Assembly (NCBI GenBank): GCA_029204225.1
Contig: CM055097.1
Coordinates: 48,444,052-48,508,051 of the forward strand
DNA: 64,000 bases
Reading direction: 5' to 3'
From: Diphasiastrum complanatum
Lineage: Eukaryota > Streptophyta > Lycopodiopsida > Lycopodiales > Lycopodiaceae
Position 1 is the stretch's first letter, and every line of letters begins with the position of its first letter. The notes under the pieces were generated by a model that was given only the letters and a program-made list of their open reading frames with translations, was not told where the DNA came from and made no database searches. The translations under genes were made by a program, and so were the position numbers. Positions 1,526-60,676 of this stretch are shown here, piece by piece.

Positions 1526-1621
1526 CTTCTCCAAGCCAAGTGAGGCCGTAAGACCAGATGTGATCAAAGAAACAACTTGGGGTGTTGCTTCTGGCACCGG
1601 TATGATAAATGTTGAAGGAAC
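1526..1621 (-). CDS. NQR: NQR-like gene, exon j: entry to MDR cofactor domain
   Basis: The exon is exactly 32 codons: VPSTFIIPVPEATPQVVSLI followed by TSGLTASLGLEK. VP-x(5)-PVP and the SGLTAxxxLEK helix precede the glycine-rich AAxGGxG NADPH loop in the family. The acceptor is GTGCAG; the donor is GTATGT, phase 0. The glycine-rich exon is not found between 1 and 1525, so it should lie outside the window. Confidence 0.92.
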
Positions 1622-2093
1622 CTGCACCACCATGATGTGGTAAAGATAAGAGCAGCTTAAGAGAGTCATCTAAACAATGGAATAATTAATAAGAATACCT
1701 AAACCATCATATGGAGATAATCCCCAATACATTCTTCAAACAGCATATATGGTGTTATGACTTGGTGTTGGTTGTTACAATGCATGAAATGAATAGAGAA
1801 ATTATAGCTTAAAGAAACTTCACAACGAACTGGGGAATCCATGCCACAGCCTGCTGCAGTGCTGCAGGCCCAGCATCTGCAGAAGCTGGTCATGCTCGAC
1901 TGTGACCTCCACCGTCACATGACAATCTTTATGGAATCTTTTCTAGAAAATGTATCCTTTGTTGTTCATATGAACAAATTTGTATAGCAGGATTGGTTTA
2001 TTAGTTATCATAAAGGAGGAGTAGGCTAATGGGTGAGTTTCTGGTTCAATTCAAAGCATAAAATCATTTTTGAAAAAGCGAGTACATGTAATT
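1622..2093. other. Intron sequence between exon j and copia A
   Basis: Nothing recognised beyond AT-rich intron sequence, with a locally GC-richer CTGCAG-rich stretch near 1850-1885. Confidence 0.5.
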
Positions 2094-2098
2094 CACCC

Positions 2099-2400
2099 TG
2101 TTAGAAATAAATGACTATGCTTAAGTTAATCCATAGGTTACTTTGACCCAAAAGGTTGAGATTTGTGTAACCATGGGTATTTAGTTATTTAGGCCATGTT
2201 AAGTTTGTCTTAATTTGTGATGGACCCAATTTTGGTCATGTACTGACTTGTGGGTCCTTAGAGGTCTAATTTGGTTTAGGGGCCCTATTTTGACTTTTGG
2301 GGGTGCCCTACATTCAATAAGTAGGTAGAGTACATATTGGCTTATTGTGTCACATTTTTCAATTTGGGCTAAGCATTGGTCTCCATTAGTTGTGTTGTTG

Positions 2401-2464
<64 letters not shown>

Positions 2465-2552
2465 GAGGAGGCCGCCCAGCCTCTTCTCTCTTGTGTCTTG
2501 TGGAGATTGATTGATAGCTAGATCTTGGTCCCATGACTCTTGTTTTCCTACA
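2099..2552 (+). repeat. Copia A 5' LTR with internal (CT)n tract
   Basis: Begins TGTTAGAAATAAATGAC and ends TTTTCCTACA. It includes a pure CT tract at about 2404-2461. The 3' LTR carries the same tract at about 5242-5280, shorter, which explains most of the length difference (454 versus 433 bp). Confidence 0.92.
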
Positions 2553-2562
2553 TGGTATCAGC
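2553..2562 (+). other. Copia A primer-binding site (initiator tRNA-Met)
   Basis: TGGTATCAGC immediately follows the LTR terminus CCTACA. It is complementary to the 3' end of plant initiator tRNA-Met, the usual primer of plant copia elements. Confidence 0.85.
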
Positions 2563-3224
2563 TTGTATGTTGGCGCCTACTCTACTTTTTGTTTTGAAAT
2601 TTCAACATCCTGCTGATTTTTCGAAGTGGAGTTTAAATAAACTTTTTTGTCTCTTTTCAGGTTGAAAGAGGGCGCCCATCATGGATCTTGGAGGAGCAAT
2701 TTTTGGCGCCCAAAAATCAGCATCTCAAATCTGATTTTTTGCAGCCAATTTTCAGCAAGTCTTGTCTTGACGAGGGCGCCCAAAAATCTGCTTCTCATTT
2801 GGGGTTTTGTAGCCACCTTGCTGTTTTTTTTTTTCAGGATTGCAGTTGTAAAGGAGGGCACTCAATATTCAGCATACCCTATTGTGGGTTAGGGCACATT
2901 TGTGGCTAGAAAATTGCAGATTTTCAGCAAGCAGTAGGGCGCTTTCAACAGCCCTATTGAAGTGTGTGTTGATCACACTATTTGGCTTCCTAATTGGGTT
3001 TCAGTGTAGGCTTCAATTGAAGCTAACCATATTTTCAAGAAGCTGGCTTTTTTGTGCAAAAAAAAGGCCATCTATCCATTATTTGTTGGGCACTTTGGTT
3101 GCAGATTGGAAGACATCTGGTGCTCCTATTTTCAGCTTATTGTTTGCTGCAAATTTTTTAGTAGATTCGGTTGTGGAAAGGGTCTCTTTCCTATCTACTA
3201 CAAGCTGAAATTCTATTGCAGGTA

Positions 3225-3637
3225 ATGGCTAAAGAATCGAAAGCTATCAGTTCTTTGTTTAATGAAGATCGGTTGGATGGCACAAACTACTCCTTATGGA
3301 GTTACATGATGAAGAATCTTCTCATAGCGAAAGGGTTGTGGGATTTGGTCAATGGTGATGAGGAAAGGCCTCCGTCTTTGGCACCACCTACACCTCGTGG
3401 ATCATCATCATCATCATCATCTTCTACATCTTCGGAAGAAAAAAAAAAAGTGGGATAGAAGGGATGCACAAGCACATTCTATGGTTGCTCTTGCTGTGAA
3501 AAGATCTATCTTACCTCATATTAGGTCTTGTAAGACATCTAAAAGTGCTTAGGATACACTTGATACTATGTATAGAGTCAAAAATCCAGCAAGAGTGGTG
3601 TATCTCAGAAATCAACTTTCTTTGTTGAAGATGCAAG
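3225..3637 (+). pseudogene. Copia A gag remnant
   Basis: Starts MAKESKAISSLFNEDRLDG with the copia gag pattern LDGTNYSLW. A serine-coding TCA repeat near 3402-3421 and an A-run near 3437-3450 precede a frameshift. The gag then continues in another frame (RDAQAHSMVALAVKRSILP) and hits a TAG at 3550-3552 where element D keeps Trp. It stops abruptly at the deletion junction about 3637. No zinc knuckle remains. Confidence 0.85.
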
Positions 3638-3639
3638 TA

Positions 3640-4442
3640 GTAACCTCTTTGGCTACCCATTTTGGTTGGCGTTTGCGGCAATTTGACATAAAGACAGCAT
3701 TCCTCAATGATAATCTCAACGAGGAAGTGTACCTTTAACAACCTGCTGGTTTTTTGTTTGAAGGCCAGGAAGATAAAGTTTGCCTTCTTAGGACGACACT
3801 TTATGGACTGCAACAAGCCCCAAGGATGTGGTATCAAAAGATACATGCCTACTTTTGTGATCGTGGGTTTACTAATAGTCCTACCGATCTACTCTTTATG
3901 TCAAGCATACTTCAGATTATATCATCATTATTTTGCTTTATGTTGATGATATTATTATTACGAGAAGTAATGAGCAGCAGATTGATGCTGTAATACTTGA
4001 CCTTGGTACGGTTTTTGAAACCTCAGATTTAGGCCTATTGCACTTTTATCTTGGTCTTGAGTTTGTAGAAGAAGGGGCTGGAATTTTCATCTCTCAAAAA
4101 CGCTACATTGGGCAGATTTTGAAGCGGTTCAAGATGGAAGATTGCAAGCCGGTTGCTACACCTATGGAGACAAGCCTGAAATTAAGTAGTCAAGGTGATG
4201 GTGAACCACTTGATACTACTTTATATTGTCAAGCTATTGGCTGTCTCATTTACCTATGTAATTCAAGACCAGACATTTCTTATAGTGTCTCACTCATGAG
4301 TCAATTCATGCATGCCGCGATGACATCACATTGGAAAGCATTGAAGAGGATCTTTCGAAATCTTCGAGGAACAAGAAGTCATGGACTGATTTTTCCTGCT
4401 TGTGATGATGCATGTTTGGTTGGTTTTAGTGACTCGGATTGA
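3640..4442 (+). pseudogene. Copia A reverse transcriptase remnant
   Basis: Encodes FDIKTAFLN, LYGLQQAPRMWY and, at 3936-3956, the catalytic YVDDIII box. The frame is broken by TAA at 3736-3738, frameshifts between about 3870 and 3935, and TGA at 4440-4442 within SDSDWGG, where the sister copy A' retains Trp. N-terminal RT motifs are deleted. Inactive. Confidence 0.88.
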
Positions 4443-4890
4443 GGTGGACATCAAGACACTAGACGCTGTATAAGTGGACATTGCTTTTTCTATGGAAATT
4501 CTGCAATTTCTTGGTCAAGTAAAAAGCAGCTCACTATTGCTACTTCTTCTAGTGAGGCAGAATATAAAGCGATATTTTCAGCCACAACGGAGTGTTTATG
4601 GCTGAGAAGACTACTTGTTGACATGAAGTTTGGCGAGCCCTCAGCCACTCTTATCTTGAGTGATAGTCAAAGTGCTATTGCCATTGCACGGAATCCTGTT
4701 TTTCATGCGAGGACGAAGCACATCGAGATCCATTATCACTTTTTTGGAGAGAGGCTTCATGATGGCGACATTTTACTTGAGTATTGTCCTACAGAGGATA
4801 ATCTTGTGGACCTCTTCACTAAGGCGTTGCCTAGAGTCAGATTTGAAGCTTTATGCAAAGCTTTAAATTTAAAACCACGTGGTGGCTTTT
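4443..4890 (+). pseudogene. Copia A RNase H remnant
   Basis: Carries SKKQLTIATSSSEAEY, LSDSQSAIAIARNPVFHART and KHIEIHYHF, then EYCPTEDNLVDLFTKALP, the standard C-terminus of copia polyproteins. The catalytic acidic residues (E of SEAEY, D of SDSQSA) are present. It is separated from RT by the TGA at 4440. Confidence 0.88.
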
Positions 4891-4938
4891 ATTACATAGT
4901 GAAGATTTCAGTTTTTTTGCATTGTCATTTAAAGAGAG

Positions 4939-5239
4939 TGTTAGAAATAAATGACTATGCAAAAGTTAATCCGTAGGTTACTTTGACCCAAAAGGTCGAG
5001 ATTTGTGTAACCATGGGTATTTAGTTATTTAGGCCATGTTAAGTTTGTCTTAATTTGTGATGGACCCAATTTTGGTCATGTATTGACTCGTGGGTCCTTA
5101 GAGGTCTAATTTGGTTTAGGGGCCCTATCTTGACTTTTGGGGGTGCCCTACATTCAGTAGTAGGTAGAGTACATATTGGCTTATTGTGTCACATTTTTCA
5201 GTTTTGGCTAAGCATTGCTCTCCATTACTTGTGTTGCTG

Positions 5240-5283
<44 letters not shown>

Positions 5284-5371
5284 GAGGAGGGCGCCCAGCC
5301 TCTTCTCTCTTGTGCCTTGTGGAGATTGATTGATAGCTAGATCTTGGTGCCTTGACTCTTGTTTTCCTACA
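4939..5371 (+). repeat. Copia A 3' LTR
   Basis: The same sequence family as 2099-2552, ending TTTTCCTACA, followed by target duplication CACCC. It contains a CT tract of about 40 bp. Confidence 0.92.
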
Positions 5372-6008: not shown

Positions 6009-6116
6009 CTGTGAGTACTCTGCAAAACCTCCAAAATTACAACTTGCAACAGATGATCCCAGTCTTACATCTGGAATATTCACGCCATCACCTAAACCAG
6101 CTACAATGCCTACAGC
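6009..6116 (-). CDS. NQR: NQR-like gene, exon i: GIVAGLG and GGFAEYS of MDR
   Basis: The exon is exactly 36 codons. It starts AVGIVAGLGDGV, completing GFE|AVG of exon h, and ends SCNFGGFAEYSQ, the GxxAEY motif before the cofactor domain in quinone reductases. The acceptor is TTGTAG; the donor is GTATGT, phase 0. The next intron (4.4 kb) carries copia element A. Confidence 0.92.
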
Positions 6117-6984: not shown

Positions 6985-7062
6985 CTCAAAGCCTGCATCA
7001 TATGGAAGGCGCTGTAAAGCATCCTGTTTATTTTTGAAGTAGCTCCCAGAAGTAAAGTTGAC
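6985..7062 (-). CDS. NQR: NQR-like gene, exon h: VNFTSGSYF segment of MDR
   Basis: The exon is exactly 26 codons: VNFTSGSYFKNKQDALQRL then PYDAGFE. It continues NASD from exon g across a 17.8 kb intron. VN(F)xSG and LPxDxGFE are quinone-oxidoreductase MDR hallmarks. The acceptor is ATCAG before GTCAAC; the donor is GTGTGA, phase 0. Codons are open only in this frame. A short 868 bp intron follows. Confidence 0.92.
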
Positions 7063-9939: not shown

Positions 9940-10297
9940 TGTAATAGATCCTAACACCACAGTAGGGCAAACACAAACTGAACTACCCAACCTTGCCTAC
10001 TCCCTGATATAGAGTAAGCCCCTCCTAGCCCAGTGTGAGGACTGATAGCATGCTACTGCCAAGTGTCGGCCACGTGTCACTGACGTGGCCGACTACACGT
10101 CGGGACCCAACTGGGGGCCCTATCCTGCTGACAGGGTCCCTAGGCTGTGTTAGGCCCGCCATGGCTATGGACCGTGCTGGGGCACACTACTCACACTGTC
10201 TTGCCCTGTTGGTCATGTACACTAGACACGACCCTGACTGTGGTATCTGACCTATCTGTGTTCCCTAGGGTTCGGCACTGGTTACGAGCTCGTAACA
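9940..10297 (-). repeat. Gypsy 3' LTR (relative to element)
   Basis: 358 bp, the same family as 15956-16313 and, reversed, as the 21456-21807 LTR. The pol reading frame runs 33 bases into this LTR before stopping at 10265. Confidence 0.93.
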
Positions 10298-12136
10298 CTC
10301 CCTCCCGTCTTGGTCCTCTAAGACAAAGTCTGGAAAAATCTTGCGAAGGACGCTGCCTCTTTCCCAAGTGGCATTCTCAACAGGCTGATCATTCCACTTA
10401 ACCAGATATTCTCGGTATAGAGTATGACGAGTCTGCGTCTCTCTACTATCAAGAATCTCCTCTGGTTCATGTGGAGGTTGTTGAGGATCCAATGGGAGAA
10501 CTAGAACACTGTCCCCTACCAGATTGTCTGATCTGGTTAAGGCTTTTCGTAACTGACTTACATGAAAGACTGGAAAAACCTTACTGCTGTGTGGGAGTTC
10601 TAGTTCATAGGTGACCTCGCCTAGTCTCCTACTGATGGTAAAGGGACCACAATACCTTGGAGACAACTTAGCACACACTCCTGATTTGAGGGTTTTAGAG
10701 TCAACTGGGACTCTCAAGTAGACTTTCTCACCAGTGGAGAACTGCACATCCCGTCTGTGTGGATCTGCATAATGCCTGGCTCGATCCTGGGACTCCTTAA
10801 TGCTACGCTTAGCATGTTCTATCATCTGGTTTAGGTCCTCTAAAAAGTTTCTGGCTGCTTCAACTTTTTCTTGTTTAAACCCTACAGCTGTGGGTGAGCG
10901 TGGCTGAAAACCGTACATTAGCATAAATGGGCTGTATCCCGTAGCTGAATGTTTGGTACTGTTGTAAGCAAACTCTAATATCGAGAGATACTCCTCCCAA
11001 TTAGTTTGCTTCTTGCTGACGTATGCTCGAAGCATATCCTCCAGCACTTGATTTACCCTTTCTGTTTGACCGTCCGTCTGTGGATGGTCGGTGGTACTCA
11101 TATTAAGTTTAGTATGGAGATGATGGAATACTGCCCTCCAAAAATTTCCAGTAAACTTACTGTCCCGGTCACTGACTATGCCGGAAGGTAGACCGTACAA
11201 TTTAAATAGCCCGTCTACAAACAACCTCGCTAACTCTGGAGCTCTAACGGTTGTTTTGGTTGGAATGAAATGAGCCATTTTGGTCAGACGGTCAACTGTG
11301 ACCCATATAGCGTCATTACCCTTTTGGGTTTTAGGCAGGCCTACTATAAAATCCATGGAGATACTCTCCCATTTACCAGCTGGTATTTCTAAGGGATGCA
11401 ACAACCCTCCTGCCTTTAAACGCTCTGCTTTATTTACTTGACATTTATGGCAACTGGTTACATACTGGTGGACGTCCTTTTTCATACTGGGCCAGAAAAA
11501 TTGCCTACGAAGAAGCTCATAGGTCCTCTGTATGCCTGGGTGTCCCGCACTAGGATTGTCATGATATTCATATAGGACCTGCTGCCTATAATCCTCTGAA
11601 TTGGGGACACATACTCTATCTCTATAGAGCAAGTACTCATCCTGAATGGAATACTGTTTCCATTTGAATCCTTGAGTCAACTGACCCTCAACCACTGGGG
11701 TTTGCTTGGGTAATACAGGCTCAGAATCCTCAACGTCCTCTGACGACGTATACTCGGACTCATCATCATCCTCAACGGAAGCTGCCGTATTCTTGGATGA
11801 ACTAGCACCAGCCCCGGGAACTGGTTCTGGAGTCTGTATCTGTCTGTTCTGGACTGAGTTCCAGATAGTAGAGAAGAATGCATCATGCTGGCATTTCCCT
11901 CTCAAGGACTCGAGTAACTCATTACGAATCTGAGTAAAATTCAGCTCGTTTATCATAGGCATTCTGCTAAGGGCATCTGCTATCGTATTGAATTTTCCAT
12001 GCCTATATCTGATAGACATGTCAAACTCTTGCATCAACTCTGCCCAACAAGCTTTTCGACCTCTAAGCTCAGGTTGATTGCAAAGGTATCTGAGACTCTC
12101 ATGGTCTGTCAGGACCTCAAAGTTGGCACCATACAA
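10265..12136 (-). pseudogene. Gypsy RNase H end, integrase and chromodomain (623-codon open frame)
   Basis: An open frame through RNase H (LTDHESLRYLC, ADALSRMP), the integrase zinc region (H-P-G... C-H-K-C), the catalytic core with D in SMDFIVGLPKT, D in VSDRDSKF and E in TDGQTERVNQVLED, the GPF/GPY module (LSPRYCGPFTISRR), and a C-terminal chromodomain (EYLVKWNDQPVENATWE). The chromodomain places it with chromoviruses, which target heterochromatin. The stop lies inside the 3' LTR: relative to the 20.2 kb relative, an 11-base deletion near 10308 removed the normal stop and part of the purine tract. Confidence 0.93.
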
Positions 12137-13138
12137 ATAATGCCTCCAAGTCTTAAGGGCATGTACTATAGAAAAGAGTTCCTTTTCATAGGCACTGTAC
12201 CTAGTCTGAGTTGGCTCGAGTTTTTTACTCTCGAACGCAACTGGTCGTCCGCCCTAAGTTAGCACAACACCTACTGCAAAGTCGCTAGCATCTGTTTCAA
12301 CCACAAATGGCTGATTGGGGTCGACGACTTTTAAAACTGGTGCTGTAGCTAAGGTTGTTTTGAGAGCATCAAAGCTCTCCTGCTGTGCGGACTCCCAAAT
12401 GAACTCCTTTCCCTTCCCCTTAAGGAGATTTGTCATAGGAACTGCTATCTGAGCATATTCCTTGACAAATCGTCTGTAATATCCCGCCAGACCAAGAAAG
12501 ATCTGAAGTTCCAAAATATTCTGAGGTCTCAGCCAACTGAGTATGGCTTTAACCTTATTTGGGTCCATCTTAATCCCATCTGAAGAGATAATGTGACCCA
12601 AATATGCTACTTCTTCAACGAAGAATTCACACTTGGATTGTTTAGCATAGAGCTTATGCTTTCTGAGCAGTCGAAACACCTTTCTGAGGTGTTTTAGATG
12701 CCCCTTCCTCGTTTTGCTGTAGACGAGGATGTCATCTAAAAATACGACTACAAACTTACCCAAGTATGGTCTGAGGACACTGTTCATCAAGGTCATAAAG
12801 GTAGCTGGAGCATTTGTGAGCCCAAATGGCATCACCTTAAACTCATAATGACCGTGACGAGTCCTAAAAGCTGTTTTCGAGACATCTTCCGATTTTATAC
12901 GGACTTGATGATATCCCGATCTGAGGTCTATTTTGCTGAAAAACTTAGCCCCGTCGAGTTGATCAAACAACTCGTCTGCCCGAGGCATAGGGTATTTATT
13001 CTTAATTGTGACTTTTTTGAGGGCTCTGTAATCTACGCAAAGACGCATAGACCCCTCTTTCTTTTTCACCAATAGGACTGGTGAGGCCCATGGTGAACTA
13101 CTGGTCTGAATTTGGCCTTTCCCAAGATAGTCTGTTAA
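12137..13138 (-). pseudogene. Gypsy reverse transcriptase and first half of RNase H
   Basis: After the 13139 stop, the frame continues through [46 protein letters not shown] and the catalytic FLDDILVYS. The thumb/connection [11 protein letters not shown] and the RNase H start [15 protein letters not shown] follow. A TAG at 12254-12256 replaces Gln before GGRPVAFESKKL. Apart from these point stops the domain is well kept, so decay is recent. Confidence 0.92.
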
Positions 13139-15084
13139 CTACCTAGTTATTTCTTCATCCTCTGTTCGGCTGACCCGATACGGAGGTTTAGAAACAGGTG
13201 CTGTACCTGGTACTAGGTTTATTACATGATCTACCTCTCTGCTAGGTGGTAAACCATGTGCCAAATCTTCAGGAAAAACATCTTTAAATTTAGACAATAA
13301 AGTTTCTAATTTACTGATTTTCTGCTGAATAGAACTGGAAATAGAAACTTCAGGAATAAACTGAAAGTCACATAAGAATACTTGATGGTCTTCGTCTCCG
13401 ATTAGCTGACAGAGCTCTGAACTGCAGACCATAGGGCTGTTGGGAACATCATGCTCCCCATGCAACTGGATCTCTCGGCCTTTATGCTGAAAGCTGAGGG
13501 TGTTCTCCTGATAGTTTCTGTGGAGGGAAGGTCCTAAACTGTAGAGCCAATCTCTCCCGAGAACAATGTCTGTTCGATCCAGGTGCATTATCTGAAAGTT
13601 TATTTCATCTTCGTACCCCTGAATACCAAGATTTAACTTACTTACCATAGTTTCCCATATTTTTTTATCTTCACCCTTAGCTAATGAAACTATGTACCTA
13701 TGCTGACTAGGTACTTCTGGTAGTTTAAGCTTTTTAACCAGGGTGTAGTTGATGAAATTATGGGTTGCCCCATCATCAACCATGACTCTTACTGACTGGT
13801 TACCAACTTTCCCATGCATACGTACTAGGTCATGCGGCCCAAAGCTGAAGGGTCTCGCTAGCATTGCAGAGGTCAGCTGGCAACAGTGTTCATGATCTTC
13901 ATGATACACTTTGATCTCGGAAGCTGCCGAGTCACTGGGGAAACATACAGTCTGAACAAGATGAACTTGTTTTTTATCTTTCTTATCTTTTTTAGTGAAA
14001 GGCCCCTTGGGACACTGTCTGACTGTGTGTCCCTTGCCCATACACACAAAGCACAAATGTTCTTGTTTGGCTTTCTCAAAATCATCTGGTTTTAAGGGCT
14101 GTATGAGTGAAGGGCGTTTCTGAGGAGCTTCACTTTTAAATTTATCTTCTTTCTTTCTTTTTAAAAATTTCTTTTTAAATTGAAAGTCTTTCTGAGGAGG
14201 CTGCTCAGAAAGTGGTTGCTGTCTCGCTCTCTTCTTACCCACTGAATCATCATAGATTTGAGCATATCTGAGAGCTTGCTCAAGGGTAGTAGGCGAGTTT
14301 CTCTGGACCTCTACTTTATATTCATCTTTGAGGCCACGGACAAATCCCCTGATTTTCTGATAGTCATCCATATTTTTAATCTTTAAAATTGCTTCTCGAT
14401 ACTGCGAGATATATTGGATGAGGGATTTATCCATTACTGTTCTTTCCCAGGCTTCCCAGGCTCTATCCAGTTCATTTTCTGGTAGAAATTCTCTTAGGAA
14501 AGCTTCTTCAAAAGCTTTCCATGATCGGGGAGTCTGCCCAGTCTCCTGGAGATTTAACCACCACTTATAGGCCATAGGCCCTAAGGAAAGACTGGCCTCA
14601 ATTGCTTGCAAATGGTCAGGGGTCTGTTTAAGAGCATGAATGTTCTTCCATTTGCTAAGGAAGGTTTGTAGAATATCTGCATTTCTATCCTTCTCTTCCC
14701 CATTAAAAGTAGGAGGCTTTAAATCTTTAAAAACACTGGGGTGAGACCGTAAAGTCTCACCCGAAACTGATGGAAGTGGAGAAGGGGATAACTGAGAAAT
14801 GGAGGGAAGGCTTCCTTTCGCGGAACCAAAATCAAGTTTTTGAGTTCAGCGAACGAGTCGTCCACACTGGACTTGAAATTGGCTAATGCCAACTTCAGTT
14901 CATCCACTTCTGTTACCAATTGGAGAAACTGCTCCTTGGCAACCAGTTCGTCGAGTTCTTCGGCGAACTGTTCATGTTCTCCCACTTCCATGGGTTCCTT
15001 CCCTTTTCTGTAAGCCAAGGCTTCTGTTTCAAGTTCGTCGAAGCCTCTCTTCGGGGGTTGATCAGGTCCCTGAGGAGTGGTCAT
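13139..15084 (-). pseudogene. Gypsy gag-protease and start of RT
   Basis: Begins MTTPQGPDQPPKRGFDELE with an acidic, probably coiled N-terminus. A one-base frameshift near 14835-14845 separates it from the main gag body (AYKWWLNLQETGQ region, then FVRGLKDEYK). The zinc knuckle CFVCMGKGHTVRQC fits C-x2-C-x4-H-x4-C. Protease shows VDDGATHNFI, where the family usually has D-S/T-G, so the catalytic Ser is replaced by Asp. Pol continues to DHVINLVPGTAPVSKPPYR and ends at a TAG (13139-13141) where gypsy elements keep Gln. Confidence 0.9.
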
Positions 15085-15941
15085 CTTCGGAACTGAAAGA
15101 AAGCTACCTTAACTTCTGAAGGAAAAAAGTCTAAAAGACTAATTTACAACTGTACAAGGGAAAGGAAAGATGACTTAGCTGTTTCTGATGACTGTACTTC
15201 CAAAGAAATTACGAAAAGGAACCCTCTCAGCTCTTCCACCCAAAATTTCAGACCTGCTGTCCCGGAAAGTCCCTGTTTATGGCTCCAAAATAGCACCAAG
15301 ATTTTCGGTGTCTTGAGTAGAGTTGCTCACTGCTCTGATTGCAAACGTGGGGCTCCAAAAAGCGAGGTAAAGGACCTTGAAAAGTATAAAACTTTCTGAA
15401 ACTGAAAACTGTCTACCCTCGCTGATCTGACAGCATCTGAGTTGGTCCAAAAAAACAAGTTTGAAGCCAAAAAAACCACTCCAAAATCTGGATTTTCGAT
15501 GGCACCCTGCTCGCTGATCTGTGGCAAGAAAAGTTGATGCCTAAACCTTCGAAAATCTTGCAACTCAGAAATGAATTTTGACTCCTTTCTCTTCCCTGTC
15601 CAGCGCTGGCCCTGCTACTACCTTTTGATTAGAACTTACTCTAATCTACTCAAAACTTGCTACAATTTTCAGATCTGAAGGCTAGCTATACAGCGATGGA
15701 TCTGCCCATCCTTTTCTCTTGAAATTCCACTCAGACTCACAGTGATCTACACTCGAAAATCAGAGAGGAAAACTGATTTTTCAGCGCTGAAGCTATTCTA
15801 AAAGATATGCTTCCAAACTGCTGAGAAATCCAGCAAATTGGGCGATTTTCCTCCTCTATTCTTTCCTAAGAATCTAAGAAATCTTTCCTATCTTCTGATA
15901 GCTTTCTCTACTGCTGCTACTTAGTTCCCTAGGATGGAGAT
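15085..15941 (-). other. Gypsy untranslated leader
   Basis: The 0.86 kb between primer site and gag start has no convincing coding sequence; it is the expected leader and packaging region. Confidence 0.6.
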
Positions 15942-15954
15942 GGCTCTGATACCA
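15942..15954 (-). other. Gypsy primer-binding site (initiator tRNA-Met)
   Basis: Minus strand reads TGGTATCAGAGCC one base inside the 5' LTR, a 13-base match to the initiator tRNA-Met 3' end. Confidence 0.93.
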
Positions 15955-15955
15955 G

Positions 15956-16313
15956 TGTAATAGATCCTAACACCACAATAGGGCAAACACTAACTGAACT
16001 ACCCAACCTTGCCTACTCCCTGATATAGAGTAAGCCCCTCCTAGCCCAGTGTGAGGACTGGAAGCATGCTACTGCCAAGTGTCGGCCACGTGTCACTGAC
16101 GTGGCCGACTACATGTCGGGACCCAACTGGGGGCCCTATCCTGCTGACAGGGTCCCTAGGCTGTGTTAGGCCCACCATAGCTATGGACCGTGCTGGGCCA
16201 CACTACTCACACTGTCTTGCCCTGTTGGTCATGTACGCTGGACACGACCTTGACTGTGGTATCTGACCTATCTGTGTTCTCTAGGGTTCGGCACTGGTTA
16301 CGAGCTCATAACA
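15956..16313 (-). repeat. Gypsy 5' LTR (relative to element)
   Basis: 358 bp, bounded by TG/CA ends. It contains a CACGTG core and an inverted GGCCACGTG/CACTGACGTGGCC arrangement shared with the other LTR, candidate G-box promoter sites. About 13 substitutions distinguish it from 9940-10297, by hand count. Confidence 0.93.
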
Positions 16314-16340
16314 CTTTTGGCATGGAAAAGCCATTAATAA
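16314..16340 (+). mobile_element. LINE copy L1, terminal 3' end resumed after the gypsy
   Basis: After the second CTTTT (16314-16318) comes GGCATGGAAAAGCCATTAAT and AAAGCT, the LINE 3' terminus. Removing the gypsy plus one target duplication restores ATGCCTTTTGGCAT exactly as in intact copies. Confidence 0.9.
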
Positions 16341-24625: not shown

Positions 24626-24982
24626 GGGGTGAATCCTCGGTCATGGTCTAGCAAGAAAAATGATGAGCGTGAAAAGCCGATTCAAAGCTATACAAAACTT
24701 CCACAATTATTTCTTGTACTTACATCACTGACGTTGACACCGACATAAAAATATTTACTGATACATGGCCAACTGTCACAGGTGGTTTGAATTGGACTGT
24801 TACTAGGTGAATTCTGATTGATGGTCTAGGAAGAAAAATGTTGTGCATTAGAAGATAATTCAAAGCTATACAATACTTCAACAAGTATTTCTTGTACTTA
24901 CATCACTGGCGTTAACACCGACATAAAGATATTTCACTAATACATGTCCATCTTTCACAGGTGGTTTGAATTGGACTGTCAC
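24626..24982 (-). repeat. Tandem duplication of exon g with its donor; downstream copy decayed
   Basis: Two units of about 180 bp (about 24626-24805 and 24806-24982) share an intron stretch, the GTAAGT donor and the exon g coding end (VTVQFKPPV then a VGHV/DGHV variant). The left, downstream unit has lost one base inside the segment encoding VKYLYV, which shifts its frame, and its 5' part of the exon is missing. It is therefore a pseudo-exon and probably not spliced, although its donor is intact. Confidence 0.8.
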
Positions 24983-25028
24983 TATCTTTGTGGCTGCTCT
25001 GAAGTTGTTGCTTAAGGTGGTTACAACC
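24902..25028 (-). CDS. NQR: NQR-like gene, exon g: start of quinone-reductase-like MDR domain
   Basis: The exon has 127 nt, one base plus 42 codons. It reads VVTTLSNNFRAATKIVTVQF... HVLVKYLYVGVNASD, the GroES-like beginning of quinone-oxidoreductase MDRs, with VGVNASD matching the family motif NP/AxD. No structural-zinc cysteines are visible. The acceptor is TTTGCAG; the donor is GTAAGT, phase 0. A decayed duplicate of this exon lies just downstream at 24626-24805. The following intron is the longest in the window (17.8 kb). Confidence 0.93.
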
Positions 25029-25306: not shown

Positions 25307-25508
25307 ACTTTTCTGAAAGTGGATGGAACAGGTGGTATAACATGTACAGAATATTCAGCAGAAGATGGCAAGACTGTTTTCTTTGGAAAAAAGGCCAGTA
25401 AATATTTTTTCTTTTCTTCATCGCTAGGCCAGTATTGAAGACCTTTTCGATTAGATATCCAGAGACAAGCTCCAGCCTGGCGATCATTCTCAATCAATTC
25501 AGATGCAC
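25307..25508 (-). CDS. NQR: NQR-like gene, exon f: SDR end and linker to MDR
   Basis: The exon has 202 nt: two bases, 66 codons, two bases. It encodes ASELIENDRQAGACLWIS, typical of the SDR C-terminus before the fusion point, then NRKGLQYWPSDEEKKKYL and a Pro-rich stretch entering the MDR half. The linker identifies the fused SDR-MDR type instead of a stand-alone SDR. The acceptor is GCCAG before GTGCATC; the donor is GTGAGT, phase 2. The next intron, at 278 bp, is the shortest of the gene. Confidence 0.93.
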
Positions 25509-37565: not shown

Positions 37566-37653
37566 CTTGAACTATGGTGCTCATGGGAAGGAAGCCATTG
37601 GTAGCAGCAATTAATTCTCTATCCACAACCTTTGTCAATGGAGTCTCTACGAA
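37566..37653 (-). CDS. NQR: NQR-like gene, exon e: SDR substrate-loop region
   Basis: The exon has 88 nt, 29 codons plus one base. It reads FVETPLTKVVDRELI... FLPMSTIVQ, the post-PE loop (ET/DT-L pattern) of SDRs that covers the substrate. It follows exon d in phase 0. The acceptor is TTAACAG; the donor is GTGAGA. It sits alone between a 6.1 kb and a 12.1 kb intron. Confidence 0.88.
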
Positions 37654-40239: not shown

Positions 40240-40660
40240 CCTTAAAAAGCACCTTCTTTTTTTTTGCCTTCTTCACCCTTTTTCGTACCTTCACAAAAAA
40301 TGCAACACATTGACCAGAATGACTTAGAAACCATTTCTGGACCACCTTCGCCTTTTCCGCCTCTTTGCAAAAAAAGCGACAAAGTACCCAGAATGCCTTA
40401 AAACCAGTTTAAGGCACCTTCGCCTTTTTCGGTTTAGGGTTTAGAATCTAATCTAAGGCACTTTTTCGCCTTCTTCACTGTCTTAAAACTAAGGCACCTT
40501 CGCCTTCTTCGTTGCCTTTAGTCTAAGGCACCTTCGCCTTCTTTGTTGTCTTCAGTATAAGGCACTTTCGACTTTTTCTCCTTTTTCGGCTTCTTCGCTG
40601 CCTTAAATCTAAGGGCACCTTCAGGATTTGCATACCTTCAGTCTAATGGGCACCTTCGAG
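40240..40660. repeat. Imperfect minisatellite of AAGGCACCTTCGCCTTCTTC units
   Basis: About eight to ten units of roughly 35-45 bp with cores CTAAGGCACCTTCGCCTT and TTCGTTGCCTT, degrading leftwards into CTTTTT-rich variants. It abuts the 3' truncation of copia D, whose reading frame runs into its right edge. Confidence 0.85.
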
Positions 40661-41963
40661 TGGGCGCAACATCATAGGTGGTCTTTTCATCAAAACGAAC
40701 ATCACGACTCACTATGATTTTATTAGTATCCATATTAAACAACCTATAGCCCTTGCTTTCGCTACTATAGCCAACAAATATGCATTTAACTCCTTGATCA
40801 TCAAGCTTGGTTCTTAGCTTATCGGGAATGAAAGCATAAGTCGTGCAACCAAAGATGCGTAAGTGAGAAACAGTAGGCTTCTTACCATACCAAACTTCAT
40901 AAGGAGTTAATATCTTCAAGGCTTTAGTAGGACACCGATTACTAATGTAAGCCGCCGTTATAATCGCTTCAGCCCAAAACTTGTGAGGTAGGCCCTTTGC
41001 CTTGAGCATGCATCGAGCCATCTCCATGATAGAGCGATTCTTTCTTTCGGCAACACCATTTTGTTGAGGTGTGTAAGGAGTTGTCATTTGATGATGGATA
41101 CCTTTGCTTTGAAGATAAGTACCGAACGTATTCTTTATATATTCCCCTCCTCGGTCGGTACGTAAGATCTTCAAAGAGTGCCCAAACTGGTTTCCTATCA
41201 TTGCTAGAAAATCCTTAAAGCGTTGAAAAACTTCAGATTTTGCCTTCATAGGATAAATCCATGTAAATCTTGAAAGGTCATCAATAAAAGTAACAAAGTA
41301 CTTACACCTTCCAATGGATTTGGTCCTCATTGGACCACATACATCACTATGAACCAAATCAAATTTGCCATTAACTCTAATAGTTCCATCAATTGGAAAA
41401 GCTTGCCTTTGAAATTTTCCAAGTATGCATCCTTCGCATACATGTCCTTCGGGATGCTCAATATTAGGAATGTCTTCAACCACATTGAATCTCTTCAACA
41501 TCTTCAAGCTAGCAAAGTTGAGATGTCCAAACCTAGCATGCCATAATTCAGCCAAATCCAAAGAATGTGAACTTGATGCAACAAGACAAAAAGATGATGA
41601 AGCTCTTCGCTCATAGGTATCCATAAGGAACAATCCACCACGTAATGTTCCCGAAGCAATGATCATAAGAGATCTCTTTGGGTCTTTGATAAGACACTTG
41701 TCTTCTTTGAATTCCACAACCAATCCTCGGTTCATAATTGTAGACACCGAAATGAGATTCTTTTTTATTTTTGGAACATAAAGTACATTACAAATGTACT
41801 TCTCCTCACCATTGGGTAAGATAATGGGGATCACTCCAATACCTTTGATAGGATAACAGGGTTTATCAACACCTTGAACTTTGCTTCCATCATGCACTTT
41901 TACAAGCTTTGTGAAGACTTCTTTGTGATAAGTCATATGGCGTGTGGCACCACTATCAATCAC
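40638..41963 (-). CDS. Copia D protease-integrase open frame (441 codons)
   Basis: Starts at MIDSGATRHMTYHKE with an intact D-S-G-A protease site. The pre-integrase zinc region HARFGHLN... CEGCILGK follows, then the integrase core with D in LVHSDVCGPM, D in LRTDRGGEY and E in NGVAERKNRSIMEMAR, and KFWAEAIITAAYISNRCPTK. It ends KIIVSRDVRF and runs into the minisatellite. It is the best-kept copia coding block in the window, but it has no RT and lacks a natural end. Confidence 0.92.
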   Translation of the reverse strand: MIDSGATRHMTYHKEVFTKLVKVHDGSKVQGVDKPCYPIKGIGVIPIILPNGEEKYICNVLYVPKIKKNLISVSTIMNRGLVVEFKEDKCLIKDPKRSLMIIASGTLRGGLFLMDTYERRASSSFCLVASSSHSLDLAELWHARFGHLNFASLKMLKRFNVVEDIPNIEHPEGHVCEGCILGKFQRQAFPIDGTIRVNGKFDLVHSDVCGPMRTKSIGRCKYFVTFIDDLSRFTWIYPMKAKSEVFQRFKDFLAMIGNQFGHSLKILRTDRGGEYIKNTFGTYLQSKGIHHQMTTPYTPQQNGVAERKNRSIMEMARCMLKAKGLPHKFWAEAIITAAYISNRCPTKALKILTPYEVWYGKKPTVSHLRIFGCTTYAFIPDKLRTKLDDQGVKCIFVGYSSESKGYRLFNMDTNKIIVSRDVRFDEKTTYDVAPTRRCPLD

Positions 41964-41990
41964 CCAATCAATAGATGAAAAAACAGCAAC

Positions 41991-42900
41991 TTATAAAGCT
42001 AAAGATGAGCTGTTTTCTGCTGAAAAACCAGCAAGATTTGAAGTGGCAAAAATCTCGCCTTGAAGAGAGATGAGATTATTAGGTGACAAAAGCATAATCA
42101 TTATTGAAAAGATTATCCTCCTTTCCAATTTTTGTTCCAAAGTAATGATTGCGGTACTTGTATCGTTACCTTTCTCTTTTTCCTTTGCAAGCCTCTTCTT
42201 ACATTCTTTGATGTGATGCCCAAACTTCTTGCAATAGTGGCACTTACCCTTCTTCTTGGAGCCTTGATCTTGAGCTTCCTTAGATTTTTGATCATCTTTG
42301 GAAGTTTTGAAAGAAGGCTTCCCTTTCCAATTGCCTTTGCCTTTGCCTTTTGCAAAGAAAGCTTGATCTTCTTGTTCACCAAAGTTGATCCTTGTTTGCT
42401 CTTCTTGAAGAAGTAAGCCAACAAGTTCGTCGAAGGAGATTTGTTGTCCCCTAAGAGAAATGCTCAATGATGACACAAATGGAAGGTAAGAATTAGGAAG
42501 AGAGTTGAGAGTAATAGATACAAATTGTGAGTTCTCAATCACCTCATCAATACTAAGAAGCTCCTCTCGAAGATCCTTGATCCTTGTCAAGTGGTTTGTA
42601 AGCAAATCACCTTCTTGCATCTTCAAGATAGAAAGTTAATTTCGAAGATATACCACTTTTGCCGCATTCTTTACTTGAAACATCTTTGCAAGAGTCTCCC
42701 AAGCACTTTTGGAAGTCTTTCATGATCTAATATGTGGCAGGATAGATCTCTTCACTGATAATGCAATGACGGAATGTGCTTGTGCATCTCGTCAATCCCA
42801 CTTCTTTTGCTCATCATAAGACACAACCGTTGATGATGAAGTAGTTGCTCTAGTTGGTGTAATAGGTGCCAAGGTAGGCGGCCTCTCTTCGTTACCATTA
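41991..42900 (-). pseudogene. Copia D gag
   Basis: Upstream part broken by stops but readable (RDAQAHSVIALSVKRSILP, SKSAWETLAKMF). 42626-41991 is open: MQEGDLLTNHLTRIKDLREE, LPNSYLPFVSSLS, a Lys-rich stretch, and zinc knuckle CHYCKKFGHHIKEC (C-x2-C-x4-H-x4-C). Confidence 0.9.
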
Positions 42901-43709: not shown

Positions 43710-43786
43710 CTCAGGGCAAAGAGCATTCACACGAATACCATGCTTACGAAACTTTGATAGAGCTCTTGTAAATAAAACAACGCCAC
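43710..43786 (-). CDS. NQR: NQR-like gene, exon d: SDR C-terminal GIRVNALCPE segment
   Basis: The exon has 77 nt. The frame continues K-G-G-V-V-L-F-T-R-A-L from exon c and ends GIRVNALCPE, the conserved SDR strand and PG-type turn (here PE) after the active-site helix. The acceptor is TTGCAG before GTGGCG; the donor is GTAATA, phase 0. A 403-bp hAT-type MITE lies 148 bp past the donor, followed by a copia element, in a 6.1 kb intron. Confidence 0.93.
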
Positions 43787-44229: not shown

Positions 44230-44335
44230 CTTTGCTACTAGAGTAGATAGGACCATCATGTGTGGGATAAAGCCCAGCAGCTGAAGCAAGATTTAGAATT
44301 ACTCCCCCATGACTTTCTTCCAGCATTGTTTGAAT
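44230..44335 (-). CDS. NQR: NQR-like gene, exon c: SDR catalytic Ser and Tyr-x3-Lys
   Basis: The exon has 35 codons plus one base. It carries VILNLASAAGLYP, with the catalytic Ser, and PIYSSSKG, with the Tyr-x3-Lys pair. The two motifs sit 14 residues apart (Ser to Tyr), normal for classical SDRs such as 15-hydroxyprostaglandin dehydrogenase. The acceptor is TTTTCAG; the donor is GTAAGA, phase 1. The next intron is short (443 bp) and shows no transposon. Confidence 0.93.
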
Positions 44336-54978: not shown

Positions 54979-55163
54979 AGCGAACCGTGTGCAATCAATG
55001 ACAGCAACTAAATTGATATCAATGACACGTCTCCACAAGCCTGTTCCATCACTGCTTTTGTCTTTAGTAAAAAATTCCTTCTCTGCTACACCAGCACTAT
55101 TGATGCAAATATCTAACCTTCCAAATATTGTCTTGTGTTGAGCAAATGCAGATGCAACTTCTC
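54979..55163 (-). CDS. NQR: NQR-like gene, exon b: NSAG motif and catalytic Asn
   Basis: The exon has 185 nt: two bases completing the Gly split from exon a, then 61 codons. It encodes FGRLDICINSAGV, where NSAG replaces the classical SDR NNAG motif, and WRRVIDINLVAVIDCTRFA, whose Asn in the INL segment is the tetrad Asn of classical SDRs. The acceptor is CAG before GAGAAG; the donor is GTAAGT, phase 0. The following intron is 10.6 kb and contains a hAT element, copia debris and a LINE derivative. Family assignment is firm from motif order; substrate is unknown. Confidence 0.9.
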
Positions 55164-56469: not shown

Positions 56470-56477
56470 GAAGTTAG

Positions 56478-57203
56478 ATACTTCCATTCAAGAACTTAAG
56501 AACGAAGTTGCAGTTATAAAAAGTGAAGCTTCTTCCCAAATTGCTACTTCGGCAAAAATCCAACAGCTCGAAAATTAGGTGGAACAACACCATATGGCTG
56601 TCCGGTCATGGGCAGATGTGCTTAAAGGTTCGTCTCCAATTATCTCTCCACCTCCGCCTTCACCTTCGCTTATCTCAGCCACGTTCACTATGAGCCGTCT
56701 GTGAGAGCATAAAGCTCTCAATGTTTGTGTTAGAGGTATTCCAAACTCTCAAAATGCTGTTGCAGAAGCTGAGAAGTGTTTGGAAGGAAATCTTCAACAC
56801 CATAGCAAAGAAAGCTCATTGCTTAACCATTTTGAATGGCCTTCCTTACTGGCCTTCGTCATATCATTTTACTTGTCACCCACATGGAGGAGGACATATT
56901 GTTGTTAACTACTTTATTGGGTCACCGGCTTTGATCCCATTTCTTCATACCTTCCGCATTATACCTCCTACCATTTCTGATCACTCCCTCCTACTTCTAT
57001 CCCTTGGTCATCATAGTACCACAGTCACAACACACCGTCCCACTCATCACCATCGCCCGGTTTTCTCTCCATCTGGTTTTCCCCTTTACACCAAATTCCT
57101 AGTTACTTTTCTCCAAGACTTCCCCTTCACCTCCTCAGTTGACCAACAAGCTATCTTTTTATCTCAGTCTCTTTTGCAATTTGCCAATACTGCCTATCCT
57201 TAG
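56478..57203 (+). pseudogene. LINE L11 ORF1 fragment and endonuclease end
   Basis: 56478-56806 is closely similar to the L10 ORF1 coiled coil and RRM start but has TAG at 56576 and TGA at 56701 plus shifts. At 56806 it joins endonuclease sequence (GLPYWPSSYHFTCHPHGGGH, PPTISDHSLLLLSLG), where the SDH motif holds the catalytic His of AP-type endonucleases. The N-terminal endonuclease is deleted. Confidence 0.85.
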
Positions 57204-57373: not shown

Positions 57374-58864
57374 TTGGGAAAAAAACTTGTTGATGCTATT
57401 GCCTCCCCATCCTCCCATTTCTTTTGGCGGATGTTCTCTAAAAACCCGTATAAACCCGCTCCTATTGCTATTGAATCATGGATAAATTATGCTACTAAGC
57501 TTTATACAATTGACTCTCTTTCCATTTCTCTTTCCCCACGCCCTTCAGAATTCACCCTCTTTACCCCGTCCATGGTTGAAAACGCCATCCAAAATGGTCA
57601 AACTGATGTTGACCTGCTAAGTATGGACTTCCTAAAACCAGTTGTTCACATTATTGCCCCATACATTTCCCATATCTTTAACCAATCTGTCATCTTCGGT
57701 CTCCCCACATCGTGGTGCACCAACCTTTTACACCCTATCCTCAAAGTCGGGGATCCTTTGATTGTTGACAACTATCGCACTATTATGATCGGTCATACTA
57801 TGGCCAAGCTATATGGATCCGTTTTACAGTCTATTGTCAGCTCACGGGCAGAGACAGAGGGGTTACATGCTATGGGACAGGCAGGTTTTCGCGCTGGCTA
57901 CTCCACGGTTGACCAGATATTCATCTTGAGATGCATTATTGAGGAGGCTAAGTTCAGGAAGCAGAGGGTTTATTGTTGCTTTGTGGATTTCCGCAAAGCC
58001 TTTGATTCTGTTCCGAGACATCTTTTACTCCAGTGCTTAGCATCGCTTGGCTTTTCTCAGGAGATCATTGCTGCTATCGTCACATTGTGTGAGAGAGTGC
58101 TGGCCCGTTTTCGAGATGGTGATGGATGGTCCTCTTACATTCTCTTTGCTCTATATATTGATGATCTTGAGCGGATTATTAGGGAGGAGGGTGGAGATGG
58201 TTGTCCGTTAGCAGATATGATTATCCCTATTCTACTGTATGCGGATGACGTGATACTTCTATCGAGATCCGCATCTGGGCTTCAGCAGCACCTTGATGCT
58301 TTATATACTTTCTGCCAGACATGGGGTTTGATGGTGAACATTGGTAAGACTAAGGTCATGGTGTTCAACACCAATCGACAACATATGAGAGACACAGTGT
58401 TCTACTATGATGGGCTTCCACTGGAGATAGTAAACTCTTATGCTTACTTAGGTGTCCTTTTCACTGGTCCATTGCTCACTTTTAGACCAACTGCACTGTC
58501 TAGGCTCCGCAAGGGGCACTCTGCTCTTGTCCAGATGGAGAGGTTTTCCTCTATTTACTATGTACATGATCCTGATATGCGCTGTCGCCTTTTTTCTGCC
58601 ACTGTCTCTCCGGTGGCTCTATATTCAGCAGAGACGTGGTGTCCTGGCTTGTCCAGAGATACTTGGAGTGATATTTCACGTTTGCAGATCCTTATGCTTA
58701 GCCAGATGATCTGTGCGAAGCAGTCAGTTCCCCATGATATCATACTGGCAGAGTTTGCCTCACCACCTCTGATTGTCGAGGCTATATTTCGGATTATCAC
58801 ATTCATTCATAGAGTCTCGGAGCTTGATTCATCCAGATATGTTGCCCATCCTCTCACAGTCTAG
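57374..58864 (+). pseudogene. LINE L11 reverse transcriptase block (496 codons open)
   Basis: RT motifs in order: LLHPILKVGDPLIVDNYRTI, AGFRAGYSTVDQIFILRCII, YCCFVDFRKAFDSVPRHLLL, then LYIDDLE, and catalytic YADDVILLSRSASGLQQH. Between the DGDGW and YILFALYID segments the conserved GVKQGCPLSPTLF stretch is missing, replaced by a short in-frame junction, so RT is probably inactive despite the open frame. Then AETWCPGLSRDTWSDISRLQ and ILAEFASPPL, shared with L2, L3 and L8. Ends in TAG at 58862. Confidence 0.9.
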
Positions 58865-59622
58865 CTAGTCAGCAGGCTAAGTCCTCATGGTTTCAGTGTG
58901 TTTCTGACCTTTTGAGTAGGTGGGGTTTATCTATATCTGATCTCCCGAATGGGTCACACGCATATATCCGCCAGCAGATTTACAGAGCTTACATCAGCAC
59001 AGTGTGGTCTCACCCAGATCCTGCACGGGTCAAGCTTCATTTTTATCACACTCATCTTCTTTAGCTTGATGTTTCCGGGCTTCCCATTCGGCCAGGTTAT
59101 TTGTCTCAGACATTATCTTTCGGCCTGCGTTACCGTCTTGGTCAGTTTAGGGTCTCTTCTCACCAGCTTGCTATTGAGACAGGCAGATACACAGACACAC
59201 CTCGACCCCCACGGATTTGTCAGTGCTGCTCTTTACAGGAGATTGAGGATGAGTTCCATTTTATTTTCCGATGTCCAGCCTACTATGAGATCAGAGGCAG
59301 ATACCATTGCTTATACAGAGATACTCCACTTACACTTGCTTCTTTCCTTGCCTTCTCAGATGCGAGATGTGTTGGTTTATTATTGCGAGAGATGTTTACT
59401 CTGAGATCTTCCTTTTTATTGGATGTTTCTGATGTGGATCATAGCCAGTCCCACATTACGCACTTTTTCCAGAAGAGGGATAGAGATGAGACTTCTGACA
59501 GTGAGATAGACATTCGACGACCAAAGCTCCAGCATCCTCTTCGCTCCTCCAGGCCCAGGGCTCTTCACCGGAGGCCAACACCTGCTTCTCACCATATCAC
59601 GCATTTTTTTATATCCACTTAG
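58865..59622 (+). pseudogene. LINE L11 ORF2 C-terminus with zinc knuckle
   Basis: After the 58862 stop the same protein continues (QQIYRAYISTVWSH, then a stop near 59062) and 59101-59622 is open: FGLRYRLGQFRVSSHQLAIE, zinc knuckle CQCCSLQEIEDEFHFIFRC (C-x2-C-x9-H-x4-C), YYEIRGRYHCLYRDTPLTL and an Arg/His-rich tail HITHFF. The same C-terminus is the part preserved in all truncated copies. Confidence 0.9.
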
Positions 59623-59796
59623 CCAGTTAGCTAACTTATTTCAGTTTTCTCTTTCCCTCTGTGTAGCTGGTGGTTAAGCTACTGATATTGTACCCTCAAC
59701 AGAGCTAGAGGTTAAGCTTTGTTTTTCTTCTTTTTTGATGTACTTTCTACTTGTCTTATGTGCCCTCGGGTACTTGACAGACATTAATATAATTCT

Positions 59797-59800
<4 letters not shown>

Positions 59801-59857
<57 letters not shown>
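59801..59857 (+). repeat. (CT)n tract, LINE L11 tail
   Basis: About 28 CT units directly after ATTAATATAATTCTAATT. Confidence 0.92.
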
Positions 59858-59859
<2 letters not shown>

Positions 59860-60015
59860 CCAAGTGGACAAATGAGGCACAAATGGGCCCTCGCTGTGAA
59901 TCCGACTGGAACCCCAGCCGATTCGAATCGTCCAGTTCCAATTCGATTCAGAATCGCCAATTCGCTGCTCTTGAATGGGCAATTCGTGAAACTAGATTTT
60001 GCAACTTTGAATTAG
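59858..60015. repeat. Possible hAT-related fragment with GATTCGAATCG motifs
   Basis: Contains CCGATTCGAATCG, AATTCGATTCAGAATCG and CAATTCGTG spaced like subterminal repeats, ending TTTTGCAACTTTGAAT, close to the right end of the 46.97 kb hAT (CTGCAACTTTGATCG). It follows the LINE L11 tail immediately. No left terminus found. Confidence 0.4.
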
Positions 60016-60502
60016 GGCTTTCCAAATAATCACGACCTGATCTAAATCACGTGTTCTTTTCCATGATACAGTAAGCAGGAGCAGGGAGTGCACTTATTGT
60101 GATTGTTTACACTCTCTTCCATCAGCAACTTCAAATCTTGATAAAATTCTTGTATGTACAAAAATAGTGTAGTAGCTAGGTCAGCTTATGCCTATGAAGA
60201 ATCTTGCTTTGCAACCCCAATCAGAGGTCAAAGAATCTGTTAATTATATAAGCTTCACCCACATGAACCAACATATACTTCCAGATTGATAACTCATGGC
60301 AAGCTGTATGCAATCAATTGCTTCGAACATATTCTCAATTGCTAAATTCCAAAATTGAGCACCACAACAGATGTCAGCAGCAAAATGCAATAACCGTTCT
60401 GAATTTTCTGTGAAACATTTTCACTTATCAGTTATTATTTCTTGTATAATCAACCAGAAAGCACTCAACCTACAAAATTGCTTGATTAGCACAAGAACAC
60501 AC
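60016..60502. other. Intron sequence just downstream of exon a
   Basis: AT-rich, nothing recognised. Confidence 0.5.
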
Positions 60503-60676
60503 CAGGATTTGTGACATCACATTTGATAAAAACTGCTGTCAGATGACTTTCAGGAAGTTTCAGCTTTGCATGTTCTTCTTTCACCAAGGCAACTGTTTCT
60601 TGTCCAATTTTCTCCAAAAAATCAACAACAGAGAGCTTTACTCCCTTTTTGGCAAGATCCAAAGCCAGTGCTCGAC
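60503..60676 (-). CDS. NQR: NQR-like gene, exon a: SDR Rossmann start
   Basis: The exon has 58 codons counting the split ones. It reads (G)RALALDLAKKG..., the helix after the glycine-rich NAD(P) loop; the preceding TGxxxGIG exon is not in the window. VVDF puts an acidic residue at the end of beta-2, which in classical SDRs usually favours NAD(H). CDVTNP supplies the Asp that packs on the adenine. The acceptor is CAG before GTCGAG. The donor is GTGTGT, leaving one base (phase 1). The next exon lies 5.3 kb away behind a LINE. Confidence 0.9.

What the first reader, a model, noticed from the sequence alone, without database searches (positions are those of the whole stretch)
1526..60676. A single SDR-MDR fusion gene spans almost the whole window in ten tiny exons
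Ten minus-strand exons of 77-202 nt join in one frame with canonical splice sites over 59 kb. No single ORF shows this gene, and standard gene callers could split or miss it because transposon ORFs are far longer than its exons. The SDR tetrad (N in DINLVA, S in NLASAAG, Y-x3-K in YSSSK) and MDR motifs are intact, so the gene is probably functional despite the load.
Basis: partly seen in the sequence, partly recalled or inferred. Interest (0 to 1): 0.9.

Follow-up and report, generated by a model that had tools for sequence, protein, structure and literature searches.

The report
Clubmoss enzyme gene with huge introns
The window holds ten small middle exons of an ordinary, already annotated plant enzyme gene from a clubmoss, stretched over 59 kb by mobile elements lying in its introns.

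Summary
In detail: ten minus-strand exons (77-202 nt, 1,241 nt) join in one frame with AG/GT sites from 60676 to 1526. The joined 413-aa protein is 100% identical to residues 11-423 of the 632-aa NCBI protein O6H91_06G095600 of the clubmoss Diphasiastrum complanatum. So these exons are already annotated as one gene, an orthologue of plant AT1G49670. Its introns hold retroelement remnants, as reported for ferns and gymnosperms.

Three corrections. (1) The window holds only the middle of the gene: the C-terminal 209 residues, with the MDR cofactor motif, lie outside it, so 'MDR motifs intact' is untestable there (the deposited protein keeps AAGGTG). (2) Gene callers did not miss these exons. (3) The SDR motif TGxxxGIG is in neither the window nor the deposited protein, which starts MIIVSLEERG; 118 of 120 aligned proteins have the motif. 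A mispredicted first exon is likely, real loss possible.

Mechanism, inferred: a 15-PGDH-like dehydrogenase fused to a PTGR3/ZADH2-like enone reductase, working in series on lipid-derived allylic alcohols in peroxisomes (about 0.3). No transcript was seen. Interest is low.

The parts
60503..60676 (-). internal coding exon, SDR part, 174 nt (starts at residue 11 of P0001, after the expected TGxxxGIG site)
54979..55163 (-). internal coding exon, SDR part, 185 nt (DINLVA, tetrad N)
44230..44335 (-). internal coding exon, SDR part, 106 nt (NLASAAG, YSSSK: tetrad S, Y, K)
43710..43786 (-). internal coding exon, SDR part, 77 nt
37566..37653 (-). internal coding exon, SDR part, 88 nt (not seen by tblastn)
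25307..25508 (-). internal coding exon, end of SDR part and linker, 202 nt
24902..25028 (-). internal coding exon, start of MDR part, 127 nt
6985..7062 (-). internal coding exon, MDR part, 78 nt
6009..6116 (-). internal coding exon, MDR part, 108 nt
1526..1621 (-). internal coding exon, MDR part, 96 nt (last one in the window; 209 residues follow outside it)
24628..24805 (-). tandem copy (85.5%) of the 83-nt tail of exon 25028-24902 plus intron head; frameshifted, second GT donor
2099..5371 (+). Copia-type LTR element remnant in an intron; LTR pair 91.6% identical
   Evidence: RVT_2
9940..16315 (-). Gypsy/chromodomain LTR element in the 17.8-kb intron; LTR pair 96.4% identical
40638..42626 (-). 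Copia-type gag and integrase open frames in an intron
57374..58864 (+). reverse transcriptase (RVT_1) open frame in an intron; element type not assigned

Best explanation
This is the middle part of the AT1G49670-type SDR-MDR fusion gene of the clubmoss Diphasiastrum complanatum. Shown: ten exons in one frame, identity to the deposited protein, retroelement open frames and LTR pairs in the introns, conservation like that of other plant orthologues. Inferred: the pre-mRNA is longer than 59 kb and is spliced to an enzyme of about 630-640 aa; the gene's size is the passive result of retroelements landing in introns. Inferred with lower odds (about 0.3): the N-terminal half oxidises an allylic lipid alcohol with NAD+, as 15-hydroxyprostaglandin dehydrogenase does, and the C-terminal half saturates the resulting enone with NADPH, as prostaglandin reductase 3/ZADH2 does, in plants usually in peroxisomes. 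The confidence given is for the gene's identity, architecture and TE-filled introns.
For: Gene model and identity to P0001. Pfam: adh_short and ADH_N in the window part; adh_short, ADH_N and ADH_zinc_N in P0001. Conservation: 84 of 88 near-invariant positions kept in the window part, as in Marchantia (84 of 88). Tree of 32 of the 120 rows: P0001's end branch 0.56, Selaginella's 0.57. Solved structures, profile of 120 rows: MDR half best with ZADH2/PTGR3 (361.5 bits; next kind 138), SDR half best with 15-PGDH (171.7; next SDR 128). AlphaFold model of the Selaginella orthologue: best match 2c0c (human ZADH2), TM 0.90 by target, 46% identity. PTS1-like C-terminus in 113 of 120; AT1G49670 named a confirmed peroxisomal protein (PMC3633942, one passage); animal PTGR3 has a PTS1 and is a 15-oxoprostaglandin delta-13-reductase (PMC8919083, passages).
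Against: No transcript seen. P0001 lacks TGxxxGIG and ends SCM, so neither NAD binding nor peroxisomal targeting is supported for this species. P0001's branch is three times the tree's median end branch (0.18), and it does not group with Selaginella; it ranks 8th from lowest of 120 for kept positions. With single sequences the 15-PGDH lead is small: 93 against 84.7 bits, 123 against 113. The 50 fold matches shown were led by MDR chains, so the SDR fold link was not tested by structure; pTM is 0.55, so the domain arrangement is unknown. The tomato orthologue is listed as trans-2-enoyl-CoA reductase in a chloroplast stroma study (PMC10493611, one passage). Bacterial PTGR3-like genes are not paired with 15-PGDH-like genes (2 of 15 have any SDR nearby).
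Confidence: 0.93

Rival explanations
1. The two halves catalyse unrelated or differently ordered reactions, for instance an enoyl-CoA or quinone reductase joined to a generic alcohol dehydrogenase, and the 15-PGDH/PTGR3 pairing is only similarity to the nearest solved structures.
For: Tomato orthologue named trans-2-enoyl-CoA reductase (PMC10493611, passage); many rows named quinone oxidoreductase; small single-sequence lead of 15-PGDH over other SDRs; no bacterial gene pairing.
Against: The lead of ZADH2/PTGR3 over other MDRs is large (361 against 138 bits), and 15-PGDH leads among SDRs in all three searches.
Confidence: 0.6
2. The clubmoss gene has really lost the first exon's TGxxxGIG and the PTS1, so its SDR half is dead or altered and the protein is a cytosolic MDR reductase.
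For: P0001 starts MIIVSLEERG and ends SCM; no TGxxxGIG exon in the 3.3 kb upstream of 60676; 1 of 4 near-invariant N-terminal positions kept.
Against: Tetrad and strand-2 Asp kept and 84 of 88 near-invariant positions in the window part kept, not what a dead SDR half would show; a short first exon far upstream is easily missed by gene callers. One other row (P0046) also lacks the motif.
Confidence: 0.08
3. Pseudogene, or an assembly artefact that strings exons together.
For: No transcript seen; a decayed tandem copy of one exon tail lies at 24628-24805.
Against: No stop or frameshift in 413 codons, AG/GT sites at the 20 exon ends, conservation like other plants, and exons in protein order on one strand.
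Confidence: 0.03

Closest known systems
AT1G49670 family of green plants (SDR-MDR fusion; rows named prostaglandin reductase-3, quinone oxidoreductase or putative 15-hydroxyprostaglandin dehydrogenase)
   Same: Domain order, length, tetrad, AAGGTG; 52-61% identity of P0001 to the other 119 aligned rows
   Different: P0001 lacks TGxxxGIG and a canonical PTS1; very long introns (those of the other genes were not examined)
Human PTGR3/ZADH2 (2c0c, 2x7h, 2wek)
   Same: MDR half: best profile and fold match
   Different: The solved chains (341-370 aa) hold no SDR half
Human 15-hydroxyprostaglandin dehydrogenase (2gdz, 8cvn and others)
   Same: SDR half: best profile match among SDRs
   Different: Chains of 255-267 aa without MDR half; modest score lead
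TE-stretched plant genes (Ceratopteris genome, MSH1, DNA-PKcs)
   Same: Short exons in long introns; TE-rich in the first two (PMC9477723, PMC10487979, PMC10419180; passages)
   Different: Those reports are of ferns and gymnosperms above all; this gene is a lycophyte's and smaller than their extremes

Membership tests
AT1G49670-type SDR-MDR fusion | SDR then MDR domains in one reading frame | tested here: met
   window part: adh_short and ADH_N; ADH_zinc_N only in P0001, outside the window
AT1G49670-type SDR-MDR fusion | full-length similarity including the linker | tested here: met
   the Arabidopsis sequence itself was only a recalled probe
classical SDR | catalytic N-S-Y-K tetrad (motif positions recalled) | tested here: met
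   N118, S147, Y160, K164 of P0001; same residue in 116, 120, 120 and 120 of 120 rows
classical SDR | TGxxxGIG cofactor motif | tested here: inconclusive
   not in the window nor in P0001; in 118 of 120 aligned rows, lacking in P0001 and P0046. The genome upstream of base 64000 could not be read
MDR, PTGR3/ZADH2 type | AAGGTG nucleotide-binding motif | tested here: met
   in 120 of 120 rows including P0001; outside the window
PTGR3/ZADH2 | reduction of 15-oxo-prostaglandin-type enones | not testable with these tools
   needs an enzyme assay
15-PGDH | NAD+-dependent oxidation of the 15-hydroxyl of prostaglandins | not testable with these tools
   needs an enzyme assay
peroxisomal PTS1 protein | C-terminal [SACP][KR][LMI] (pattern recalled) | tested here: not met
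   P0001 ends SCM; 113 of 120 rows meet it, 7 do not (P0001, P0016, P0026, P0027, P0034, P0040, P0119)

The most novel reading that the evidence does not exclude
The plant fusion is a self-contained oxylipin-inactivating enzyme: the two successive reactions that animals run with separate 15-PGDH and PTGR3 are fused in one peroxisomal chain, so that a reactive enone passes from one active site to the next. The clubmoss copy may have lost the cofactor site of the first step and the peroxisomal address.
Probability: 0.25. Interest if true: 0.5.

Novelty: already known. Interest (0 to 1): 0.15.

Why it matters
As a gene finding it is ordinary: an annotated orthologue with long TE-filled introns. 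Two small points are useful. The public clubmoss protein probably has a wrong first exon, a caution for studies that use gene models from long-intron genomes. And the two halves of this widely conserved plant enzyme, for which I found no assigned function, are closest among solved structures to two enzymes that act in series in animals, which makes its substrate class directly testable.

Tried and rejected
5' exon: neither a TGxxxGIG-type peptide nor the deposited MIIVSLEERG is encoded in 60677-64000 on the minus strand. 3' exon: peptides AGKME and ESGETAL, which follow in P0001, are not in the window.

Bacterial fusion: one scan of genome contigs gave 25 loci, none covering both halves (18 match the MDR part, 7 the SDR part). 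The scan used two peptide patterns, both from the MDR half, so it is no proof of absence. Gene pairing: of the 15 strong PTGR3-like loci (L001-L015), 2 (L002, L005) have an SDR match in the flanks held (29% and 35% identity); several flanks are short.

NCBIfam: in the best 25 rows shown for each of three proteins no family reaches its cut-off. My first count of the glycine motif (117 of 120) looked at the first 60 residues only; P0011 has the motif at residue 84, so the right count is 118 of 120. No dN/dS: no DNA of a close relative was at hand. Expression: none tested.

Literature: eight answered searches listed no paper titled on the function of AT1G49670 or on a two-step 15-PGDH/PTGR3 fusion in plants. 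Of the eight papers that name AT1G49670 I saw passages of four and only the listing of the other four. The library lacks most subscription journals.

Full report
Observation. On the minus strand there are ten exons: 60676-60503, 55163-54979, 44335-44230, 43786-43710, 37653-37566, 25508-25307, 25028-24902, 7062-6985, 6116-6009 and 1621-1526. Each lies between AG and GT, the phases join, and 413 codons hold no stop. The nine introns are 5339, 10643, 443, 6056, 12057, 278, 17839, 868 and 4387 nt. The exons make up 1,241 of 59,151 nt, 2.1%. Pieces of these lengths drawn at random from the introns would all be open in one frame with probability about 1e-8.

Identity. The joined protein matches NCBI protein O6H91_06G095600 of Diphasiastrum complanatum (P0001, 632 aa, contig of 75.6 Mb) at 100% over all 413 residues, E 8.6e-272. 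The window is therefore from this clubmoss (family Lycopodiaceae) or one almost identical to it, and the ten exons are already annotated as one gene. The next listed row is at 59%. Of 2,535 hits 120 were listed; rows whose shown name gives an organism are land plants. Two rows (P0084, P0090) carry EukProt names beginning SM000, which I recall as the streptophyte alga Spirogloea; if so, the fusion is older than land plants.

What is outside the window. P0001 runs on for 209 residues after the last window exon, including AAGGTG and the ADH_zinc_N match. At the other end 118 of 120 aligned rows have TGxxxGIG; P0001 and P0046 do not. P0001 starts MIIVSLEERG. Neither that peptide nor TGxxxGIG is encoded in 60677-64000. 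The simplest reading is a mispredicted first exon in the public model, the real one lying further upstream; a true loss is possible. The genome could not be searched: the genome search did not complete.

Constraint. Among positions at least 97% uniform in the other rows, P0001 keeps 84 of 88 in the window part, 74 of 76 after it, and 1 of 4 in its first ten residues. For the window part it stands 8th from the lowest of 120, level with Marchantia. In a tree of 32 of the 120 rows its end branch is 0.56, like Selaginella's 0.57 but three times the median of 0.18, and the two lycophytes do not form a group. SDR tetrad: N in 116 of 120 (D in 4), S, Y and K in 120 of 120; Asp at the end of strand 2 in 116 (Glu in 4). 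None of this looks like a decaying gene. A transcript was not seen, and P0001's cluster has one member, from ncbi, uniref and nr only.

Introns. All 19 open frames of 150 aa or more were scanned against Pfam: 11 match retroelement families (one of these, 19987-20631, below its cut-off) and 8 match nothing. LTR pairs are 96.4% identical (9940-10299 / 15956-16315) and 91.6% (2099-2552 / 4939-5371). A tandem copy of an exon tail lies at 24628-24805 (85.5%), frameshifted, with a second GT donor; reading on to it meets stops. Long TE-filled introns are known in related plants: in Ceratopteris the mean intron is 5,555 bp, 17,745 introns exceed 10 kb and 706 genes exceed 100 kb (PMC9477723, passages). 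MSH1 reaches 805,861 bp in Cycas, with gene length correlated with intron TE content (PMC10487979, passages), and DNA-PKcs about 794 kb in Cycas (PMC10419180, passages). I found no intron statistics for D. complanatum.

How it probably works. With a profile of the 120 rows the MDR half is nearest to ZADH2/PTGR3 (361.5 bits; next kind 138) and the SDR half to 15-PGDH (171.7; next SDR 128) among solved structures. With single sequences the SDR lead is small (93 against 84.7 bits; 123 against 113). A model of the Selaginella orthologue (mean pLDDT 82.8, pTM 0.55) matches human ZADH2 best; the 50 matches shown are led by MDR chains and say nothing about the SDR half. That 15-PGDH and a 15-oxo-prostaglandin reductase act one after the other is recalled knowledge; PTGR3 as such a reductase with a PTS1 is in PMC8919083 (passages). 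Of the 120 plant proteins 113 end in a PTS1-like tripeptide, and AT1G49670 is called a confirmed peroxisomal protein (PMC3633942, passage). So the fused enzyme may oxidise an allylic lipid alcohol and then saturate the enone; I give this about 0.3. Against it: no assay, the tomato orthologue listed as trans-2-enoyl-CoA reductase in a chloroplast stroma study (PMC10493611, passage), no pairing in bacteria (2 of 15 loci with an SDR nearby), and P0001's own SCM end. AT1G49670 stands in a plant SDR inventory without an assigned function (PMC3541173, passage) and in a list of stress-induced genes upregulated in an apomictic Boechera (PMC7761559, passage).

Verdict. Real, ordinary and already annotated. 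What the public record probably has wrong is the first exon, which the window does not contain.

Noticed in passing
P0001 residues 1-10; window 60677-64000: The public protein starts MIIVSLEERG and lacks TGxxxGIG, which 118 of 120 aligned rows have; probably a mispredicted first exon.
   Followed up: partly
P0001 residues 630-632: Ends SCM, while 113 of 120 rows end in a canonical PTS1; peroxisomal targeting may be weakened in this clubmoss.
   Followed up: no
24628-24984: Head-to-tail duplication of 178/179 nt (85.5%): exon tail plus intron head; the downstream copy is frameshifted and carries a second GT donor.
   Followed up: yes
L001-L015: Unfused bacterial MDR genes from Anaerolineae/Chloroflexi and one Rhodothermales MAG are 45-53% identical to the plant MDR half, close enough to ask about ancient gene transfer.
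   Followed up: no
52035-52380 and 56468-56813: An inverted pair, 93% identical, in two neighbouring introns; the open frame 51799-52719 over the first copy has no Pfam match.
   Followed up: no
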